In this document: piece after piece, positions 17,589-28,016 of the stretch
Numbering within the stretch: the stretch's first letter is position 1
How the letters are laid out: each line of letters begins with the position of its first letter
Source: Terriglobia bacterium
Lineage (GTDB): Bacteria > Acidobacteriota > Terriglobia > JAJPHL01
Direction of reading: 5' to 3'
Length of the DNA stretch: 64,000 nucleotides
Assembly (NCBI GenBank): GCA_021325275.1
Contig: JAJPHL010000050.1
Location: forward strand, 1 to 64,000
Position numbers and translations under genes: made by a program
Notes under the pieces: generated by a model
Told to the model about the DNA's origin: nothing
What the model saw: the letters and a program-made list of their open reading frames with translations, nothing else
Database searches by the model: none

Positions 17589-18305
17589 TCAAAAGCCGGA
17601 TGGCGGCTCGTTCAGCGACGCCGCGATGACCGCGCGCGTGCGCTCGGCGAGTTCGCCGCGATCGGACTCGGCAAGACCATCGGTGGAAATCGCGGGGTGC
17701 ACGATGAACCGCACGGGACCCGGCGTGATGCCGAACGTTCCGCGCGGCATCATCTCGCGCAACCCGATCGTGGTGATCGGGACGATCACGGCGTTGGCGC
17801 GAATCGCCATGAGAAACACGCCATGGCGAAATTCCTGCAACTGGCCGTCGCGGCTGCGCGTGCCTTCGGGAAACGCGAGCATGTTGAATCCTTCTTTCAG
17901 CCGCTCCGTCCCGATCGTCACCGATTGCGCGGCGCGCTCGGTTCCGCGATAAACGGGGATAAAACGGGCCATGAGAAAGGCACGCCCAGCGATGGGAATT
18001 TTGAACGCTTGATGCTTGGCCATGATCACGACGCGCGGCAGAATCGTCGCGATGACCGGAGGATCGAGATTGCTCGCGTGATTGGAAATAAAAACGGCGG
18101 GGCGGCCGGGCCGCAGATTCTCGGGATGTTCCACCGTGATCTTCGCGCCGCTTAACCACGTCGCAAATTTCGCGACGCGGATGCCCGCCCAATATACAAG
18201 GTTGGTGTCCTTCGTGAGCATCGTCAGCGGCATGAAGATCAGTCCTTCGATGACCATGTACAGCGACGAAAACACCAACACCGCAACCGTTCTTAGCTCC
18301 GCCAC
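17589..18305 (-). CDS. 1-acyl-sn-glycerol-3-phosphate acyltransferase (PlsC family)
   Basis: A 238-residue membrane-associated acyltransferase. An N-terminal hydrophobic helix (VAVLVFSSLYMVIEGLIFM) is followed by the HX4D catalytic motif in SNHASNLDPPV and the acceptor-binding motif AFPEGTRSRDG. These enzymes place the second acyl chain on lysophosphatidate in phospholipid synthesis. It is the first gene of a possible plsC-trxB-prodh run and is divergent from the amidase with about 34 bases between starts. A second, shorter PlsC-like protein is in the lipid operon at 21168-21797. Confidence 0.9.
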   Translation of the reverse strand: MAELRTVAVLVFSSLYMVIEGLIFMPLTMLTKDTNLVYWAGIRVAKFATWLSGAKITVEHPENLRPGRPAVFISNHASNLDPPVIATILPRVVIMAKHQAFKIPIAGRAFLMARFIPVYRGTERAAQSVTIGTERLKEGFNMLAFPEGTRSRDGQLQEFRHGVFLMAIRANAVIVPITTIGLREMMPRGTFGITPGPVRFIVHPAISTDGLAESDRGELAERTRAVIAASLNEPPSGF

Positions 18306-20197: not shown

Positions 20198-21160
20198 CTA
20201 CGGCGTGAAAAAATATCGCGTGATGTGAAAGAAGATCGGCGCGGAGAAGCAAATCGAGTCCAGGCGATCGAGCATTCCGCCGTGGCCTGAGATGGAGTGG
20301 CCCCAATCCTTCACGCCGAGGTCGCGCTTGATCGCCGACATCACGAGGCCGCCGAGAAAACCCATCAACACGATCACCGCGCTCATCGCGGCGGCTTGAT
20401 TGCGCGTAAATGGCGTGATCGGCGCGAGGACCACGCCAAGCACAATCGCGCTGGCCGCGCCGCCGACGAATCCTTCCACGGTTTTCGACGGTGAAAGATC
20501 CGGCGCGATCTTGTGGCGGCCGAGAAGTTTGCCCCAGATGTATTGCAAAACGTCGGAGGCCTGAACGACCGTCACCAAGTACACGACAAGAAGTCCGGCG
20601 CGGCGCGGGTCAACGTCGCTGAATCCCGAAATCCGCAGCATCAGCAGGGCGGGCACGTGCGACACGCAGTAGATGCAGATCATGACGCCCCATTGGGTCT
20701 CGGCGGCGCGTGCCAGAAAGTTTTGCGAGTCGGCACGCAGCGCGGAAAGAATCGGCAGGATCAAGAATCCGTAGACCGGCAGCAGCACGCAGAACAATCC
20801 ATACCAACCCGTGGCGACCAAATAATACTGCGCGGGCAACGCGATGAAGAAACTCGCCAGCAGCGCGTCGTGATCGGCGATGCGTCCGGGCAAGAGCGAA
20901 ACAAATTCGCGCAATGCGAAGAACGAAACGGCGGCGTACGCAATCACCATTGCGGGACGGCCGGCGATAGTCACTACGGCAAAGACGGCGATCATCACCC
21001 ACCAGGCGCGAATTCGCGCGTTCAAGTTGGCGATGACGGCCGCGGTAGAACCTTCGCGATAGCGCGTGTGCAACGCGAAGCCGACGCCGCTGGCGGTGGT
21101 CAATGTCGCGCCGAGTCCAGTGAGGAGCGGACGAACTTCGGGATCCAGGTAAACATTCAT
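20198..21160 (-). CDS. CDP-diglyceride synthetase-like cytidylyltransferase (YnbB/CdsA family)
   Basis: A 320-residue polytopic membrane protein with about eight hydrophobic helices. The full CdsA signature is present near the C-terminus: SAIKRDLGVKDWGHSISGHG followed by GMLDRLDS. CdsA enzymes make CDP-diacylglycerol from phosphatidate and CTP. The ATG at 21160 is preferred over longer in-frame starts because it follows the preceding stop by 7 bases and fits the family. It is the last gene of a six-gene operon whose content matches E. coli ynbABCD, where ynbB is the CdsA homologue. It probably supplies the activated lipid for the YnbA-like transferase at 25322-25978. Confidence 0.92.
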   Translation of the reverse strand: MNVYLDPEVRPLLTGLGATLTTASGVGFALHTRYREGSTAAVIANLNARIRAWWVMIAVFAVVTIAGRPAMVIAYAAVSFFALREFVSLLPGRIADHDALLASFFIALPAQYYLVATGWYGLFCVLLPVYGFLILPILSALRADSQNFLARAAETQWGVMICIYCVSHVPALLMLRISGFSDVDPRRAGLLVVYLVTVVQASDVLQYIWGKLLGRHKIAPDLSPSKTVEGFVGGAASAIVLGVVLAPITPFTRNQAAAMSAVIVLMGFLGGLVMSAIKRDLGVKDWGHSISGHGGMLDRLDSICFSAPIFFHITRYFFTP

Positions 21161-21167
21161 GCGGACC

Positions 21168-21797
21168 TCATTTTTCCGCACGAGGTGCGACTCGTGCGAG
21201 GTCGAGCACGGCGTCCTGCAGCCGCGCGAGAAATTGTTGCTTCGATTCGTTCGCGGCGATCCCAACCGGCTCGCCGAAATTCGCCGAGCAGATCATTGGC
21301 GCGATGAGGAAAGCGCCCTTGGGCATCGCACGATGAAGATTGTTCAACCACACGGGAATCACTTCGGCTTCGGGACGCGCGGCAGCCAAATGGAAGACGC
21401 CGGACTTGAACGCCAGCAACTGGCCGCCGTCGCCGCGCGTTCCTTCGGGAAAGAGAATCAAGGAATCGCCGTGTTGCAGTGCTTCCAGCATGGGATCGGG
21501 CTCGCGCGGATCGCGCGTGCCGCCCCGGCGTACGAGAATCGCGCGGAAGACGCGGCGCGCGAGATAGCGCCGCACCACGCCGCGGTCCCAGTAGTCGGCG
21601 GCGGCCACAGGACGCGTGCGGCGACGCACTTCCGCCGGCAGCATGGCCCACAGCAGCACAAAATCCAAGTGGCTGGTGTGGTTCGCCACAAAAATCCGCT
21701 GACGATTTTCAGGGCGGCAGCCTTTCCAGTGCGCAGTCCCGCCGGTGAAGAGCTTGGTGCTTCGCGCGATTACACGAGCGGCGGTGGTTTCGAGCAT
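21168..21797 (-). CDS. PlsC-family acyltransferase in lipid operon
   Basis: A 209-residue acyltransferase. The HX4D motif is in VANHTSHLDFVLL and the glycerol-phosphate motif in LILFPEGTRGDGG. It is shorter than the PlsC at 17589-18305 and lacks a clear N-terminal membrane helix. It lies between the small membrane protein gene (12 bases) and the CdsA-like gene (7 bases), so it is almost certainly cotranscribed. E. coli ynbABCD has no such gene; here it could provide the phosphatidate for the dedicated lipid pathway or acylate its product. Confidence 0.9.
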   Translation of the reverse strand: MLETTAARVIARSTKLFTGGTAHWKGCRPENRQRIFVANHTSHLDFVLLWAMLPAEVRRRTRPVAAADYWDRGVVRRYLARRVFRAILVRRGGTRDPREPDPMLEALQHGDSLILFPEGTRGDGGQLLAFKSGVFHLAAARPEAEVIPVWLNNLHRAMPKGAFLIAPMICSANFGEPVGIAANESKQQFLARLQDAVLDLARVAPRAEK

Positions 21798-21809
21798 CTT
21801 GGCCTCCTC

Positions 21810-22289
21810 TTAATAAGTGTGAATGGCGGCAATCGCGAGAATCAGCGATCCCAGCTCGGCAGTTATGAAGATCGCCTGCCAGCGCAGCATGGCGATAGAA
21901 CGGGCACGGCGTTGCGCGAAATTGCGTTGTTTCGAGTTGGCGAGTTTCCACGACCGCAACAGCGCGTCGAGATCATCGCCAGAATTCCCGCTGTGAGCGA
22001 GCGCGCGGAACAACCCGGCGTCGGCACGGACACGACTGGCGAGCCACAACGCCAAGACCCAATGCGCTAAGGCGGCCGCAGCAAGAAAGAATGATTCCTG
22101 CAGCGACGAGGATGCCGCGAGCACGCACAAGAGAAGCGCGGCGAAACCAACAACGTTGCCGGCAGCAGCGAGCGGTTGGCCGGCGTCGAGAACGGCGGCT
22201 GTCGCGAGACATTCAAACGACGTCGCGTTTGTTTTCTTCGAGGCGACCTCTTCCAAGTAGCCTTTGACGGTTGCTTCCACGTTGTTCAT
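21810..22289 (-). CDS. Small four-helix membrane protein in lipid operon, unknown
   Basis: A 159-residue protein. A soluble N-terminal 45 residues is followed by hydrophobic segments (VVGFAALLLCVLAASS, SFFLAAAALAHWVLALWLA) and, after a basic loop, a final one (AIFITAELGSLILAIAAIH). The ATG at 22289 is chosen because GGAGGA stands about 5 bases ahead of it and its ATGA overlaps the stop of the upstream phosphatase gene. No family is recognised. Its fixed place between the YnbD-like and PlsC-like genes suggests a role in the same lipid pathway. Confidence 0.7.
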   Translation of the reverse strand: MNNVEATVKGYLEEVASKKTNATSFECLATAAVLDAGQPLAAAGNVVGFAALLLCVLAASSSLQESFFLAAAALAHWVLALWLASRVRADAGLFRALAHSGNSGDDLDALLRSWKLANSKQRNFAQRRARSIAMLRWQAIFITAELGSLILAIAAIHTY

Positions 22290-23611
22290 TGGTTCCTCCA
22301 TTCTTCGAGACGCCTGCGATGCGCGGACGACAATGCGACTTGCGGACGCCGTGCGCGAATCGCGGCGACCGCATCCTCCACCGACTTAGCGTGACCCTGG
22401 GCCAACATCCACGCGCCCACGGCTGTCGCGCCGCGCGAGTATCCGAGCGCGCAGAACACTAAGGTCGGCCGCCGCTCACGCTCCGCTTCGATCGCGGCGA
22501 CCATCGCGTCGAGTTGCGCCGCCGAAGGCACCACGAGGTCGAGGCATGGGACGCACTGGTACGATGCTCCTTTCGTTTTGACAGGGAGCTCGGCGCTCAC
22601 ATCAACCAGCGAAGCGATTCCGAGTGCGTCGCGTTCGCGGCGCGCGGGGGATCGCCCGAGCCACACGCCCGAGTGAATCTCGCGCGGCGGTGCGTGGCGA
22701 GTCCACACGCGTGCGTTGATCCACGCGACGGCCAAGTACGGAGCCAACAGAAACGCCATCGGCCCGCTGATCGCTCCGGCGTTTTTCTGAAACAATCCAC
22801 CGCGACGGCGTGCGTAAATCACGGAAACAATCGCCAGCGATCCGGCGGGCCAAAGCAGCAACCACGCCGCTCCCTGCAACGTAGTTGCGCCCGCCACTAG
22901 CGCAGCGGCGCCGGCAGCATAAACGCCGGCAATTTTCCACGCCGGACCGCTGCGAAGCTGCGGATCGTCAACGGTCCGCATCGGAAACAACGCGAGACAG
23001 AACATTCCGGCCCACAATCCAGTGGCCACGTCGATGAAATGATGTTGATAAGTGGTCAGCGTCGAAAGCGCCATGAGGACGAACCACGCCTGTACGGTCC
23101 GGCGGGACCATCCTTTCAGATGCGCCGAGAAAATCGGCCACAGGACTACGGTTATGCCGACGTGCAATGAAGGCGCTTGATTGAACGGCGAATCGAATGC
23201 CGCGAGTTTCGCGAAGAGCCACCCGAAGATTCCCGAGGCAACGGGCCGGTCAAAAGAAAACCGCAGCGGAAGCACCATGAAACAGACGACCGAGAGAACC
23301 TGGATGGTTACGAGACGCTTGACGTGCGTTGCCAACTCCTGGCGCGTGCCGCACAAAAACAAGGACGCGGCATAGAACAGGTCCGTCGACCAGTACGGGA
23401 TGATCGTCCACGGCAGGAAAGGAATCGCGCGTTCCCATCCGAAAACGATGCTGCCGACGTTGTGGTGCAACTCCGCGACCCGCGCGGCGAATCCGTAGGT
23501 GACAAAGAAAAACGGCGCGAGCAGCAGAAAGACGAACGAGGCCGCAGCGGGACCGTGGTCGTCGATCACATCGACGTGCGGCAACGTTCCTTGCCTGGTT
23601 ACCGTGACCAT
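22286..23611 (-). CDS. PAP2 - dual-specificity phosphatase fusion (YnbD-like)
   Basis: A 441-residue membrane protein. Residues 1-300 form a PAP2-superfamily membrane domain with motifs SPFNQAPSLHVGITVVLWP and TYQHHFIDVATGLWAGM. Residues 330-441 form a cysteine phosphatase domain with the CX5R loop CALGYSR (Cys387, Arg393) and the WPD-like stretch before it (VPCLDLVVPS). The same PAP2 plus dual-specificity phosphatase layout defines E. coli YnbD. The ATG at 23611 has GGAG upstream and sits 2 bases after the YnbC-like stop. Both halves are phosphatases that could act on phospholipid head-group phosphates. Confidence 0.88.
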   Translation of the reverse strand: MVTVTRQGTLPHVDVIDDHGPAAASFVFLLLAPFFFVTYGFAARVAELHHNVGSIVFGWERAIPFLPWTIIPYWSTDLFYAASLFLCGTRQELATHVKRLVTIQVLSVVCFMVLPLRFSFDRPVASGIFGWLFAKLAAFDSPFNQAPSLHVGITVVLWPIFSAHLKGWSRRTVQAWFVLMALSTLTTYQHHFIDVATGLWAGMFCLALFPMRTVDDPQLRSGPAWKIAGVYAAGAAALVAGATTLQGAAWLLLWPAGSLAIVSVIYARRRGGLFQKNAGAISGPMAFLLAPYLAVAWINARVWTRHAPPREIHSGVWLGRSPARRERDALGIASLVDVSAELPVKTKGASYQCVPCLDLVVPSAAQLDAMVAAIEAERERRPTLVFCALGYSRGATAVGAWMLAQGHAKSVEDAVAAIRARRPQVALSSAHRRRLEEWRNQ

Positions 23612-23613
23612 GT

Positions 23614-25356
23614 TTATCTCCTCTGCGCGATCGACACGGTGAAGATACCCGCGTCGTCGGCTAGTTGATCGACTTTTTCGAAGCCCGCCGCTTCCACCAG
23701 TTGATCGAGTTCGCCTTGCGTGCGGCGGCGCATCACCCACGGCTGCATTCCGCGATGGCTCGGCAACGTGCGCGCGATCATCTCGAGTTGCGGATGCCAC
23801 GGCTGTCCCGTGTAGACGAGATATCCGCCCGGCTCGATGGCCGCCGCGAGTCCCGCCAGCGATTGGCGCGGCCCCGCATTTTCCGGAAACAACTCGTACA
23901 AGCCTGAAACCACCGCGAGCGTCGGGCGCGGCTTCGTTTCCGCGAGCTGCTTCTCGTCGAAGGCGTCGCCTTGCTCGAAGCGTGCGACATCTTCCAGTCC
24001 TTTTTCACGAATCAACGCGCGGCCGCGCCGAACGTTTTCCTGACTGTAGTCGCGCAGCAGGATTTGTTCGACCTCCGCGTCTTGCAGCGCCGAGAGGACG
24101 TAACGCCCGTAACCCGCGGCCACGTCGAGCACGCGCACGGGCCGGCCGGCGTTGCGCAATCGCGCGGCTCCCTCGCGCAGCAGCCGGCCCACGTTGTGTC
24201 CGCGCACGCGAATGCCGCGCCATCCGGCTGAGTTCAGATAGAACCAATCGATCGAGCGGCCGAGCGGCGTGACGCCCGACGGCTGATTGCGATACACGTA
24301 GTCGAGCGTGCTGCCGGAATCGAAACCCGTCGCGAACCCCAAGCGCAAGCCGCCAGAGAGCCGCGAGATGCGCCGCAAGCCACGGCGAAAAGCGCGATAC
24401 ATCAAACCGCGACGCGAAGTCCACGGCAGCGGTTGGCGCAGCGCGTCGTACTCACGCTTGGTGTAACCCGATCGATCCGCTTCGATCAGCGATTCCTGTG
24501 CGGGCGGCGCTTCAAACATGCGCAGCAGAAACGCGCGCAGTTGGCTGATCGGCAGATGACGATCTTTTTCTCCCAGCAAATCGTGAAGGAATCCGTGGAA
24601 TTCGTGAATCTCCTTCACCGGCGACCCGAGCCGCGCGAAGAAATCGAGTTGCGGACGGCGGCGCACCACCCAATCGTCGCCGGCCACGAGCATTTGCGTA
24701 GGCACGCGGATCGCTTGGGCGTCGGCGATCACGCGATCGGCCGTGGAGTAGAGCGCCAGCAGCACTTTCACGGAGATCGGGCGGCGGATCAGCGGGTCGA
24801 TGCGATACGAGGCGATTCTTTCGGGATCGTGCGTCAGCGCGCTCGGCCTGACGTAGGAATTCACCTGGAATTCGCCGAACATTTTGCTTGCGGCGCTCAG
24901 CGCCGGTCGCGCCAGCGGCACGTAGAGCTTCACTTCAAACGCCGGCGCGGCCAGCGACATGCAACGGATCTTGGGCGCGTAGTCGTGCGCCCACGCGGCG
25001 AGAAGAACGGCGCCGACGCTTTGTCCGGCCACGGCAATTTGTTCCATGGCGATTCCGTATTCACTCGAAATGTGGCGGATGAAGCAATCGACGTCTTTCG
25101 TGAACGTGCCGAGCGTGGGTTCCGAGCGATCTTGCTCGTTGAACGAAAGGCCATGACCGCGCGCGTCCCAGGCGAAGATCGCGAAATTCGGCAAGTCGAG
25201 TTCGTCCGCCAAATGTTGCAGGCGGCCGGAATGCTCGTGACCGCGATGGAAAAGCACGATCGCGCCCCCGGGCTTTCCGGTTTGAGGGGGCCAGTAGCGA
25301 TAGAAAAGTTCGGTTCCGTCGCTAGACGGAAAGTATCGACATTCGGTTTTGCGCAT
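23614..25356 (-). CDS. Alpha/beta hydrolase - SAM methyltransferase fusion (YnbC-like)
   Basis: A 580-residue two-domain protein, the same size and layout as E. coli YnbC. The N-terminal alpha/beta hydrolase has FHRGHEHSGRLQHLA and the nucleophile elbow GQSVG near residue 115. The acid and His are in the AGDDWVV and HGFLHDLLGE regions. The C-terminal half has SAM motif I in VLDVAAGYGRYVL near residue 420, a YELFPEN motif and a Rossmann methyltransferase end. Its start overlaps the CDP-alcohol transferase gene by 35 bases. It probably deacylates and methylates a lipid intermediate; the substrate is unknown. Confidence 0.88.
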   Translation of the reverse strand: MRKTECRYFPSSDGTELFYRYWPPQTGKPGGAIVLFHRGHEHSGRLQHLADELDLPNFAIFAWDARGHGLSFNEQDRSEPTLGTFTKDVDCFIRHISSEYGIAMEQIAVAGQSVGAVLLAAWAHDYAPKIRCMSLAAPAFEVKLYVPLARPALSAASKMFGEFQVNSYVRPSALTHDPERIASYRIDPLIRRPISVKVLLALYSTADRVIADAQAIRVPTQMLVAGDDWVVRRRPQLDFFARLGSPVKEIHEFHGFLHDLLGEKDRHLPISQLRAFLLRMFEAPPAQESLIEADRSGYTKREYDALRQPLPWTSRRGLMYRAFRRGLRRISRLSGGLRLGFATGFDSGSTLDYVYRNQPSGVTPLGRSIDWFYLNSAGWRGIRVRGHNVGRLLREGAARLRNAGRPVRVLDVAAGYGRYVLSALQDAEVEQILLRDYSQENVRRGRALIREKGLEDVARFEQGDAFDEKQLAETKPRPTLAVVSGLYELFPENAGPRQSLAGLAAAIEPGGYLVYTGQPWHPQLEMIARTLPSHRGMQPWVMRRRTQGELDQLVEAAGFEKVDQLADDAGIFTVSIAQRR

Positions 25357-25978
25357 ATTCTTCCAATCCTTTCTTCACTCGATTGACGATGGTGAACAAC
25401 AACAGCACGGCCATTGCGGGTGGAAACCAATCCGCCACGAGCACGGGCAGTCCTTGGCCCCGACCGATCCACACGGCGAGCGCGCCAAAGACAAGCGCAC
25501 GATCGCTCTTGCCCATCGGCCCGTCGTAGCGGCGACTCGCTCCGGCCAACACGCCGGCGATCCCCGCAAATTCGGAAATCACACTCAGCACGATCAGTGC
25601 ACCGATGCGCCACGCGCCGAACACTCCGACAAACGCGAACGGGAGATACATGAAAATGTCGGAGACCACGTCGGTGAGTTCGTTCAGGTACGCGCCGAGT
25701 GCGGAACGCTGTCCGAATTCGCGCGCCATCATTCCGTCGATGGCATTGAGCGCCATCCGCAGAAAGAACACCGGCGGCAAGATCCAAAGGATCGCGCGCG
25801 CCTGCGCTTCCACATCGAACGCCAGGCCGATCGACACAAAGAGTCCCGCGGCGCAGGAAATCAGGCAGGCCGTCATCGTGACTTCGTTGGCGGTGACGCC
25901 GCCGGTAACCAGCCAGCGCGCCACCGGCCGCATCATGCGTTGAAACGCGGGCTTCAGCGAGTACAGTGTGAGTTTCAT
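25322..25978 (-). CDS. CDP-alcohol phosphatidyltransferase (YnbA-like)
   Basis: A 218-residue membrane enzyme with about six helices. The CDP-alcohol phosphatidyltransferase signature is readable as NAIDGMMAR, eight residues, G, AYL, N, ELT, D, VVS, D. Two positions that are Asp in the canonical motif (the first, and the one three residues after the second Gly) are Asn here. Family members swap CMP of CDP-diacylglycerol for an alcohol such as glycerol phosphate, inositol or serine. It is the first gene of the operon; with the YnbC-, YnbD- and YnbB-like genes it forms a complete ynb-type set. Confidence 0.9.
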   Translation of the reverse strand: MKLTLYSLKPAFQRMMRPVARWLVTGGVTANEVTMTACLISCAAGLFVSIGLAFDVEAQARAILWILPPVFFLRMALNAIDGMMAREFGQRSALGAYLNELTDVVSDIFMYLPFAFVGVFGAWRIGALIVLSVISEFAGIAGVLAGASRRYDGPMGKSDRALVFGALAVWIGRGQGLPVLVADWFPPAMAVLLLFTIVNRVKKGLEEYAQNRMSILSV

Positions 25979-26126: not shown

Positions 26127-28016
26127 ATGGCCTCGCCGCGCGGTTACCGCTTCGCCGCCTATGAGTTGGACTTGGGCGCGCGCGAACTGCGGAAGAACGG
26201 CCTGAAGATCAAACTGCAGGACCAGCCGCTCACGGTGCTTGAACTGTTGCTGGAGCGCGGCGGCGGGCTCGTGACGCGCGAGGAGATCCGCAACAAACTG
26301 TGGTCCGCCGACACGTTTGTGGATTTCGACCGCGGTCTGAACACCACGATCAATCGCTTGCGAGACGCGCTGGGCGACGAAGCGGAGAATCCGCGATACG
26401 TGGAAACTTTGCCGCGTCGCGGGTATCGATTCATTTTTCCTGTGGAGGTAATTCGCGACGAACCCGCCACGCCGGAGCCTGTGCCCGCACCAGCCCTCGC
26501 GCCAACGTCGGCGGAAGAGCCCGCGCCCGCAACACGCCTGAGCGATTGGCGATTGTGGTCATGGCGCGTCGGCGGATTGCTGGTCGTTGCGGCCGCGCTG
26601 ATCCTGTATTTTTCGGGATGGCGCATGCACCGCGCGCCGGCGGGACGCATCGTCGTGGCGGTGTTGCCGTTCGCGAACCTGAGCGGCGACGCGTCGCAGG
26701 ATTATTTCAGCGCCGGGCAAACCGAAGAGCTGATCGCGCGACTCGGCCGCTTGAATCCCGCGCAACTCGGCGTGATCGGCTACACGTCGATGTCCGCGTA
26801 CAAACGCGACGGCAAGAATCTCACGCGGATCGGCGCGGACTTGGGCGCGCAATATGTTGTGGAAGGCAGCGTGACGCGGTCGGGAGATCGCGTGCGCGTG
26901 AACGCGCGCTTGATCCAAGCGTCCGACGGCCTGCCGGTGCTTTCCAACACGTACGAGCGCGCCGTGGGCGACATCTTGGAAGTGCAAAGCGACGTGGCGC
27001 AGGACATCGCCGAACAAGTGCGCATTCAACTGGCGCCGCGGCCCAAGGCGTCGCCGGTGAATCGCGAGGCGTATGAAGCATTGCTGCTCGGACGTTACTT
27101 CATGAATCGCCGCGCTGACGAAGACCTGCGAAAAGGTTTGGAGCAATTGCAATCGGCGGTGGCGAAGGATCCTAACTTCGCGCTGGCGCACGCCTCGCTC
27201 GCCGACGCCTACAATTTGCTGGGATTCTACAGCGTGATTCCGCCGAACGAGGCTTATCCGAAGGCCAAGGCCGAAGCCTTAAAAGCGCTGGAACTCGATC
27301 CCCGGCTCGCCGAGGCGCATGCGGCGCTGGCCGACCTTACTTACATCTACGAATGGAATTGGACCGAAGCGGAACACCAGTTTCAACTGGCGCTGAACCT
27401 GAATCCCAACTACGCGCCCGCGTACCAATGGTACGGAATGTTCCTGGCGCTCCAAGGACGCTCCGATGAAGCGATCGCCGAGCTGCGCAAGGCGCTGGCG
27501 ATCGATCCGCTGTCGCTTGTCATCAACGCCGACTACGGCCTGTGCTTTTACTACGCGCGGCAATACGATCGCGCGATCCAGCAGTACGAAGCCACGCTGG
27601 CGCTCGACAATTCCTTTTCGCTCACGCACAACTGGATGGGCATGGCGCTGCTGCAAGTGAAACGCTACGACGAAGCGATCGCGCACTTCGAGCAAGCTGT
27701 GAAACTTTCGGGCGGCAGCCAGGGATCGTACGCGCTGCTGGCGTACGCATACGGCCGCGCGGGACGCCCGCGCGAAGCGCAAGACACGCTGCATACGCTC
27801 GAGTCGATGAGCAAAAGGCAATACGTGTCGCCGGCCTATATTTCCGCGGCGTGGGCGGGCGTCAATGATCGCGAGAAAGTTTTTTCCTGGGCCCAGAAGG
27901 CCGTGGAACAGCACGCCGCGTTGCTCGTTCGCCTGAAAGTGGAACCGGTGCTCGATCCGGTGCGCGACGATCCGCGCTACAAATCGCTGATGGAACGCGT
28001 GGGATTGAAACCGTAG
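26127..28016 (+). CDS. CadC-like winged-helix regulator with membrane helix and TPR domain
   Basis: A 629-residue protein. Residues 1-105 are an OmpR-type winged helix (YELDLGARELRKNG, VTREEIRNKLW, VDFDRGLNTTINRLRDALGD, and the wing ETLPRRGYRF). After a Pro/Ala linker comes one transmembrane helix (VGGLLVVAAALILYF, around residue 155). Next is the FlgO/TolB-like domain (VVAVLPFANLSGD, GAQYVVEGSVTRSGDRV) and then TPR repeats to the end. This is the one-component design of CadC, with the sensor outside and DNA binding inside. It is divergent from the lipid operon by 148 bases, so that operon is a candidate target. Confidence 0.9.
   Translation: MASPRGYRFAAYELDLGARELRKNGLKIKLQDQPLTVLELLLERGGGLVTREEIRNKLWSADTFVDFDRGLNTTINRLRDALGDEAENPRYVETLPRRGYRFIFPVEVIRDEPATPEPVPAPALAPTSAEEPAPATRLSDWRLWSWRVGGLLVVAAALILYFSGWRMHRAPAGRIVVAVLPFANLSGDASQDYFSAGQTEELIARLGRLNPAQLGVIGYTSMSAYKRDGKNLTRIGADLGAQYVVEGSVTRSGDRVRVNARLIQASDGLPVLSNTYERAVGDILEVQSDVAQDIAEQVRIQLAPRPKASPVNREAYEALLLGRYFMNRRADEDLRKGLEQLQSAVAKDPNFALAHASLADAYNLLGFYSVIPPNEAYPKAKAEALKALELDPRLAEAHAALADLTYIYEWNWTEAEHQFQLALNLNPNYAPAYQWYGMFLALQGRSDEAIAELRKALAIDPLSLVINADYGLCFYYARQYDRAIQQYEATLALDNSFSLTHNWMGMALLQVKRYDEAIAHFEQAVKLSGGSQGSYALLAYAYGRAGRPREAQDTLHTLESMSKRQYVSPAYISAAWAGVNDREKVFSWAQKAVEQHAALLVRLKVEPVLDPVRDDPRYKSLMERVGLKP

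What the first reader, a model, noticed from the sequence alone, without database searches (positions are those of the whole stretch)
20198..25978. Expanded ynbABCD-type lipid operon with two extra genes
Six genes in strict order with overlaps or gaps of 2-12 bases encode a CDP-alcohol phosphatidyltransferase (YnbA-like), an alpha/beta hydrolase-methyltransferase fusion (YnbC-like), a PAP2-dual-specificity phosphatase fusion (YnbD-like), an unknown small membrane protein, a PlsC-like acyltransferase and a CdsA-like synthetase (YnbB-like). This is every part needed to make phosphatidate, activate it, attach a head group, dephosphorylate and methylate it, so it looks like a self-contained pathway for an uncharacterised phospholipid. 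The E. coli operon has no known product; the acyltransferase and small membrane protein are additions.
Basis: partly seen in the sequence, partly recalled or inferred. Interest (0 to 1): 0.78.

Follow-up and report, generated by a model that had tools for sequence, protein, structure and literature searches.

The report
Widespread operon for an unknown phospholipid
Six neighbouring genes of a bacterium belong to a widely shared gene set that probably builds and tailors a membrane lipid nobody has identified, using a transferase in which two catalytic residues thought to be universal are replaced.

Summary
The six genes are real, tightly packed, and carry intact catalytic motifs. The claim that the acyltransferase (P) and small membrane protein (m) are additions to ynbABCD is wrong. 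In 30 neighbourhoods from random draws of two phyla, 24 hold all six genes. E. coli's four-gene operon sits inside a clade whose relatives carry P, so E. coli most likely lost P and m.

The cassette is modular. A CDP-alcohol-transferase homologue (A), PlsC-like P and CdsA-like B form a three-gene core that also occurs alone. The hydrolase-methyltransferase (C) and the phosphatase plus membrane protein (D-m) are optional modules. P and B evolve together (r 0.94) and have been swapped as a pair.

The main new finding is in A. The two metal-binding aspartates D1 and D3 of the CDP-alcohol phosphotransferase signature, described as absolutely conserved, are asparagine in nearly every homologue examined. 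The catalytic base D4 and the phosphate-binding Arg155/Arg195 equivalents are kept.

Best reading: P and B supply CDP-diacylglycerol; A attaches phosphatidyl to a phosphorylated alcohol; D's phosphatase domain removes the phosphate; C methylates or deacylates. Headgroup and product are unknown. Inositol is unlikely as a rule: 22 of 28 host genomes lack inositol-phosphate synthase.

The parts
25322..25978 (-). A: YnbA-type CDP-alcohol phosphotransferase homologue, 218 aa, with the N-x2-D-G-x2-A-R-x8-G-x3-N-x3-D-x3-D variant of the signature
   Evidence: PF01066 26.8 bits against cut-off 22; signature NAIDGMMAREFGQRSALGAYLNELTD; profile match to PIP synthase structures, 6h53 E 3.4e-12
23614..25356 (-). 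C: YnbC-type alpha/beta hydrolase (Hydrolase_4) fused to Methyltransf_20 methyltransferase, 580 aa
   Evidence: PF12146 200 bits, PF12147 451 bits; methyltransferase model pLDDT 94
22286..23611 (-). D: YnbD-type PAP2 membrane domain fused to a dual-specificity phosphatase domain, 441 aa
   Evidence: PF00782 47.9 bits; PAP2 sub-threshold in the window; model pLDDT 90, DSP domain matches PTPMT1 3rgq at Z 18.1, tied with many other DSPs
21810..22289 (-). m: small membrane protein, 159 aa, invariant R86, D90, D108, R122, R127 in 29 aligned sequences; follows D in nearly all loci
21168..21797 (-). P: PlsC-like lysophospholipid acyltransferase, 209 aa
   Evidence: PF01553 73 bits; HX4D and PEGTR motifs
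20198..21160 (-). B: YnbB-type CdsA paralogue (CDP-diacylglycerol synthase), 320 aa
   Evidence: PF01148 220 bits; KR..KD..HGG..DR.D signature

Best explanation
This is a member of a widespread modular phospholipid cassette. Core: P acylates lysophosphatidate to phosphatidate, B converts it to CDP-diacylglycerol, and A, a variant ('N-type') CDP-alcohol phosphotransferase homologue, transfers the phosphatidyl group to a small phosphorylated alcohol. Tailoring: the cytoplasmic DSP domain of D removes the head-group phosphate; D's PAP2 domain, with m as likely partner, acts on the lipid at the outer face; C methylates the lipid and can deacylate it. Shown here: conservation, modularity, co-evolution, intact motifs, the Asn substitutions and the kept phosphate-pocket residues. 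Inferred: every reaction, the order of steps, D's topology and m's role. The alcohol and the final lipid are not identified.
For: Conserved unit: 24 of 30 randomly drawn neighbourhoods hold all six genes, in several orders; no flanking gene family is shared by more than 4 of the loci compared. Core: in the 398-genome Pseudomonadota draw, 8 of 10 further strong A loci without a C gene are A+P+B alone, and 10 of 11 more distant A loci have P and B nearby. Three genomes lacking B at the C locus carry a YnbB-type B elsewhere, 53-58% identical, beside P in two of them. P and B: distance correlation 0.94, and replaced together in 9 of 36 compared loci while A, C and D stay alike. D and m: 95 of 98 D genes with room downstream have an m in the locus; of 6 loci without D, 5 have no m. 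Phosphorylated acceptor: R160 and R200 are invariant apart from gaps and align with R155 and R195, the phosphate-binding arginines of PIP synthase; K157 aligns with R152. A phosphatase of the DSP type in the operon fits a phosphatidyl-X-phosphate intermediate. YnbB makes CDP-DAG in vitro (review passage).
Against: No activity is shown. D1 and D3 normally bind the metal, so A may be inactive or do other chemistry. YnbD did not replace PGP or undecaprenyl-pyrophosphate phosphatases in E. coli (PMC7413402 passages). E. coli YnbB could not replace CdsA for bulk lipids. No gene for a head group is linked. The core occurs without D, so the phosphatase is not required everywhere. The closest structure to the methyltransferase has no known function, so its substrate is unconstrained. 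One locus (L008) has m beside P rather than D, and one (L015) has m without D.
Confidence: 0.55

Rival explanations
1. The cassette serves the glycolipid MPIase or a similar phosphoglycolipid: B and A join CDP-DAG to a sugar phosphate and the other genes trim the product.
For: YnbB overproduction raises MPIase in E. coli (PMC6362211 passages). A's phosphate-pocket residues are kept.
Against: ynbB deletion leaves MPIase almost unchanged. The cassette is patchy: Methyltransf_20 cassettes in 26 of 397 Pseudomonadota and 4 of 296 other genomes of the window's phylum. No flanking gene, so no glycosyltransferase, recurs at the loci compared.
Confidence: 0.1
2. A is not a synthase; the set remodels existing phospholipids by deacylation with C, reacylation with P, methylation with C and dephosphorylation with D.
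For: Hydrolase and acyltransferase sit in one operon. Two metal-ligand aspartates of A are asparagine in nearly all homologues.
Against: The stripped-down form found most often keeps A, P and B and drops C and D. That is the synthesis part, not the remodelling part. D2, D4 and the phosphate pocket of A are invariant apart from gaps.
Confidence: 0.12
3. A makes phosphatidylglycerophosphate and D's DSP domain is its phosphatase, as PTPMT1 is in mitochondria: a second PG route feeding a methylated PG.
For: The DSP domain matches PTPMT1 among other DSPs. Glycerol 3-phosphate is available in every host (general knowledge).
Against: E. coli YnbD did not complement a PGP phosphatase mutant. A is closer to archaetidylinositol phosphate synthase (66.8 bits) than to PgsA (20.2 bits), both below the cut-offs.
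Confidence: 0.12
4. The product is an inositol phospholipid.
For: A's closest relatives with structures are PIP synthases. The window's own genome has an inositol-1-phosphate synthase.
Against: 22 of 28 cassette genomes lack that synthase. S132, K135 and R137 of the inositol pocket have no counterpart in A.
Confidence: 0.07
5. The genes are neighbours by chance.
For: None found.
Against: Recurrence across phyla in several gene orders, and congruent distances with 0 of 999 permutations reaching the observed value for each of 10 pairs.
Confidence: 0.01

Closest known systems
E. coli ynbABCD operon (uncharacterised; chromosome-like copy read as L086)
   Same: Homologues of A, B, C and D (C 53%, D 41%, A 40%, B 35% identical), same domain fusions in C and D, same Asn-for-Asp change in A
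   Different: E. coli copy lacks P and m and has order A-B-C-D; the window and most relatives have A-C-D-m-P-B
Plasmid cassettes of Citrobacter and E. coli (L087, L143) and Pseudomonas/Burkholderiales chromosomal cassettes
   Same: A, B, P, C and D present (D cut short in L143); m in most chromosomal cassettes
   Different: Gene order; on plasmids m is weak (L087, 10.5 bits, E 0.23) or not seen
Three-gene P-B-A clusters of Rhizobium, Paracoccus, Gemmobacter and Nitratireductor plasmids
   Same: B up to 59.5% identical, P, and a CDP-alcohol transferase homologue with both Asn substitutions
   Different: No C, D or m; A only distantly related and without the Arg of the A-R pair
Mycobacterial phosphatidylinositol phosphate synthase (PgsA1, 6h53; PIPS)
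   Same: Fold family, D2, D4, G1, G2, and the phosphate-binding arginines R155 and R195
   Different: D1 and D3 are Asn; inositol-contacting S132, K135 and R137 not kept; R152 is Lys
PTPMT1-type dual-specificity lipid phosphatase
   Same: DSP fold with C-x5-R
   Different: Fused to a PAP2 membrane domain; many protein-type DSPs match equally well

Membership tests
Class I CDP-alcohol phosphotransferases | Pfam CDP-OH_P_transf above gathering score | tested here: met
   26.8 bits against 22
Class I CDP-alcohol phosphotransferases | D1 and D3 of D1xxD2G1xxAR...G2xxxD3xxxD4 (called absolutely conserved, PMC4634129 passage) | tested here: not met
   Asn at both in the window; N78 in 113 of 114 core sequences (1 gap), N99 in 114 of 114, both in 4 of 4 plasmid P-B-A clusters; N78 in 20 and N99 in 21 of 21 further loci; the 4 other homologues of the window's genome have Asp
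Class I CDP-alcohol phosphotransferases | D2, G1, A-R, G2 and the catalytic base D4 | tested here: met
   D81, G82, A85-R86, G95, D103; the Arg is lost in the distant plasmid clusters
Phosphatidylinositol phosphate synthase | Phosphate pocket R155 and R195 | tested here: met
   R160 and R200 in 113 of 114 core sequences, 1 gap
Phosphatidylinositol phosphate synthase | Inositol-side residues S132 and K135 | tested here: not met
   Glycine at the aligned positions (G139)
Phosphatidylinositol phosphate synthase | Host makes inositol phosphate (PF01658) | tested here: not met
   Only 6 of 28 cassette genomes have it; the window's own is one of the 6, so it is met for this host and not met as a rule
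ynbABCD-type operon | Linked A, B, C, D homologues with the C and D domain fusions | tested here: met
CdsA family | CTP_transf_1 and KR..KD..HGG..DR.D signature | tested here: met
   220 bits; signature in 109 of 110 B proteins
CdsA family | Supports bulk phospholipid synthesis | not testable with these tools
   E. coli YnbB could not replace CdsA (passage)
PlsC-type acyltransferase | HX4D and PEGTR motifs | tested here: met
   each in 106 of 107 P proteins, and in the window
PTPMT1-type PGP phosphatase | DSP fold with C-x5-R | tested here: met
   motif in 104 of 108 D proteins; L067, L046, L052 and L079 lack it, all with a contig end within 500 bases of D; fold
PTPMT1-type PGP phosphatase | PGP phosphatase activity | not testable with these tools
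   E. coli YnbD failed to complement (passage)
Methyltransf_20 with known substrate | A characterised structural neighbour | tested here: inconclusive
   Best match 3ocj, Z 22.5, rmsd 2.9, 247 aligned, function unknown

The most novel reading that the evidence does not exclude
N-type transferases form a separate enzymatic class that works with its own acyltransferase and CDP-lipid synthase, probably by channelling. They make a so far undescribed phosphatidyl lipid in roughly a tenth of Pseudomonadota species (strong YnbA-type matches in 36 of 397 randomly drawn genomes, one a remnant and one degenerate), and the methylated form is the product of ynbABCD in E. coli. This would also explain why YnbB makes CDP-DAG in vitro yet cannot replace CdsA.
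Probability: 0.3. Interest if true: 0.8.

Novelty: new variant of a known kind. Interest (0 to 1): 0.52.

Why it matters
If A is active it shows that a signature described as invariant is not, with a changed metal site and perhaps a changed acceptor. It would give the orphan ynb genes of E. coli a framework: a three-gene core plus two optional modules, of which E. coli keeps a reduced copy. It also turns a vague 'unknown lipid' into defined experiments: express A+P+B first, then add C, then D+m.

Tried and rejected
Rejected: (1) P and m as additions of this genome. (2) Inositol head group as the general case. (3) Chance neighbourhood. (4) Phage origin: no phage match to the 5,781 bases with blastn.

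Led nowhere: the structure of the methyltransferase domain gives no substrate; its best neighbour has no known function. Fold searches with D list only its DSP half, so the PAP2 half was not compared; AUR1- or sphingomyelin-synthase-like chemistry for it is a recalled idea, untested. Family searches with m gave single weak hits only. Flanking genes show no recurring partner. A VTT-domain gene beside P-B-A in one genome scores below its gathering score (29 against 33.9 bits), and the similar-looking neighbour in L227 gave no family.

Rows dropped before counts: 8 of 13 matching genomes had weak matches (19-34 bits) that I took for general methyltransferases. In one search, two weak second matches. 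In one search, matches below 50 bits were not read. The 80 named loci are the best 80 of 537 relatives, hence biased toward the window; prevalence and six-gene counts use only the random draws, while the D-m, motif and distance counts use both sets. In one search one row (L052) was left out by the program; L088, L147 and L148 have long branches. In one search my recalled CdsA pattern was too strict (17 of 110), and I relaxed it (109 of 110). The methyltransferase motif pattern fits 110 of 118 C proteins, and the hydrolase G-x-S pattern 112 of 118, or 116 of 118 after relaxing. Papers: only passages found by term were read, plus listings.

Not-in-print statements rest, in an open-access library only. 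I found no paper naming a product of the whole ynbABCD set, or the Asn-type signature, there; most listed papers were not opened.
Full report
Observation. The window is part of a 6.86 Mb genome in 75 contigs. The nearest relative of C is a Bryobacterales (Acidobacteriota) genome at 66%, so the host is probably an acidobacterium; I did not classify it otherwise.

Are P and m additions? No. I sampled genomes without regard to gene content. PF12147 (C's methyltransferase) has a strong match in 4 of 296 other genomes of the window's phylum and in 26 of 397 Pseudomonadota other than the chosen centre. I fetched all 30 neighbourhoods and scored them with profiles of the six families built from the named relatives. 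All six genes are present in 24 of 30. The exceptions are L147 (C alone), L148 (A, B, P, C), L167 and L168 (A, C, D, m), L173 (A, C) and L174 (A, C, P, B). In L167, L168 and L173 the genome carries a YnbB-type B elsewhere at 53-58% identity; beside it lies P in two of the three, and in one also a second N-type A. Among the 80 named loci, the best hits to the window's C and therefore biased, 53 have order A-C-D-m-P-B and 6 have A-B-P-C-D-m.

E. coli. The ynbABCD copy read (L086) has no P between B and C and no recognisable m after D. In the tree of C it joins the plasmid cassettes L087 and L143, which carry P (support 100/100), and then a group with two Budviciaceae that have all six genes and L173 (A, C). 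Loss in the E. coli lineage is the simplest reading; the tree was midpoint-rooted for drawing.

Core and modules. A profile of A searched over 398 Pseudomonadota genomes found 37 strong matches, the centre included. Ten of these genomes have no Methyltransf_20 match. Their loci (L222-L231) are A+P+B without C, D or m in eight; one is a truncated A/B remnant (L230) and one a lone, degenerate A (L231). Eleven further genomes have distant A homologues; P and B are nearby in ten (L234 is the exception). Plasmid clusters of Rhizobium, Paracoccus, Gemmobacter and Nitratireductor have the same three genes. A Pseudanabaena plasmid has A, B, P and only the methyltransferase half of C, and a Fusobacterium record has C, A, B. 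So A, P and B form the core, C is one optional module and D-m another.

D with m. Of 110 loci (80 named, 30 random), 95 have D with m; 3 have D without m (L006, L021, L053); 6 have a contig end within 500 bases of D; 5 have neither; 1 has m without D (L015). In one of the 95 (L008) m lies 4 kb away beside P. In orders where D and P are separated, m stays with D (L146, L172 and the A-B-P-C-D-m loci).

P with B. Over 36 dereplicated cassettes, pairwise distances correlate 0.94 for P-B; 0.65-0.72 among A, C and D; and 0.38-0.49 between the two blocks. For all 10 pairs, 0 of 999 permutations reach the observed value. Nine of the 36 carry a divergent P-B pair while their A, C and D are no more distant than usual; with these left out, all pairs correlate at 0.72 or more. 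So P-B has been exchanged as a unit, which fits two enzymes acting in succession.

The altered transferase. [quoted passage not shown] PMC6506517 passages). In the profile alignment to M. tuberculosis PgsA1, YnbA N78 falls on D68 (D1), D81 on D71 (D2), N99 on D89 (D3) and D103 on D93 (D4); I counted the positions on the printed alignment. N78 is found in 113 of 114 core sequences (one gap) and N99 in 114 of 114; both are present in the 4 plasmid three-gene clusters. In 21 more loci N78 is found in 20 and N99 in 21. The four other homologues in the window's own genome have Asp at both. The phosphate-binding R155 and R195 correspond to R160 and R200, and R152 to K157, all invariant apart from gaps; S132, K135 and R137 on the inositol side are not kept. 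I read this as a conserved, working site for a phosphorylated acceptor other than inositol phosphate. Activity has not been shown here, and a D4-to-N change nearly abolishes the classical enzyme, so changes at D1 and D3 could matter equally.

Phosphatase. The DSP domain of D is well modelled and matches many DSPs about equally, PTPMT1 among them (Z 18.1). The PAP2 residues H150, H190 and D194 are invariant in 39 aligned sequences. With a usual N-in topology, inferred from helix order in the model and not computed, the PAP2 site faces outward and the DSP inward.

What is known. YnbB makes CDP-DAG in vitro, cannot replace CdsA for bulk lipid, and raises MPIase when overproduced, while its deletion has little effect (passages). 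YnbD did not complement PGP or undecaprenyl-pyrophosphate phosphatase mutants (passages). ynbB was one of five hits in a transposon screen touching phosphoglyceride-linked ECA but was not needed for it (passages). In the open-access library searched I found no paper on a ynbABCD product or on the Asn variant.

Verdict. The operon is not an unusual expansion but the ordinary, full form of a widespread orphan cassette. What is new is the modular layout and the consistent double Asp-to-Asn change in its transferase. The product remains unknown.

Noticed in passing
window 17589-18305 (-): A second, ordinary PlsC-type acyltransferase (104.6 bits) lies a few genes away and is not part of the cassette.
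   Followed up: no
window 26127-28016 (+): A divergent gene starting 148 bases from the start of A, apparently a winged-helix plus TPR regulator-like protein by reading; no flanking gene recurs widely at the other loci compared.
   Followed up: partly
L226 861-1397 (-): A VTT-domain (DedA/scramblase-type, recalled) protein directly beside a P-B-A core, below the gathering score; a similar-looking neighbour beside P in L227 gave no family match.
   Followed up: partly
L139 8882-9268 and L142 5606-5983: A 125-128 aa protein of no known family sits between B and A in Nitratireductor and Paracoccus clusters; it is not a match to m.
   Followed up: partly
L230 9262-9935: A cassette remnant with truncated A and B, apparently a recent loss.
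   Followed up: no
L171 9208-11361: A roughly 717-aa unknown protein lies between C and D in an otherwise complete cassette.
   Followed up: no
L089 (Moraxella osloensis plasmid): A cassette broken up among transposase genes, with a patatin-like phospholipase and an SDR dehydrogenase beside the methyltransferase half of C.
   Followed up: no
L086, L088 and hits H24, H25, H103 (PLSDB): Records of 2-5 Mb that look like whole chromosomes are filed as plasmids.
   Followed up: no
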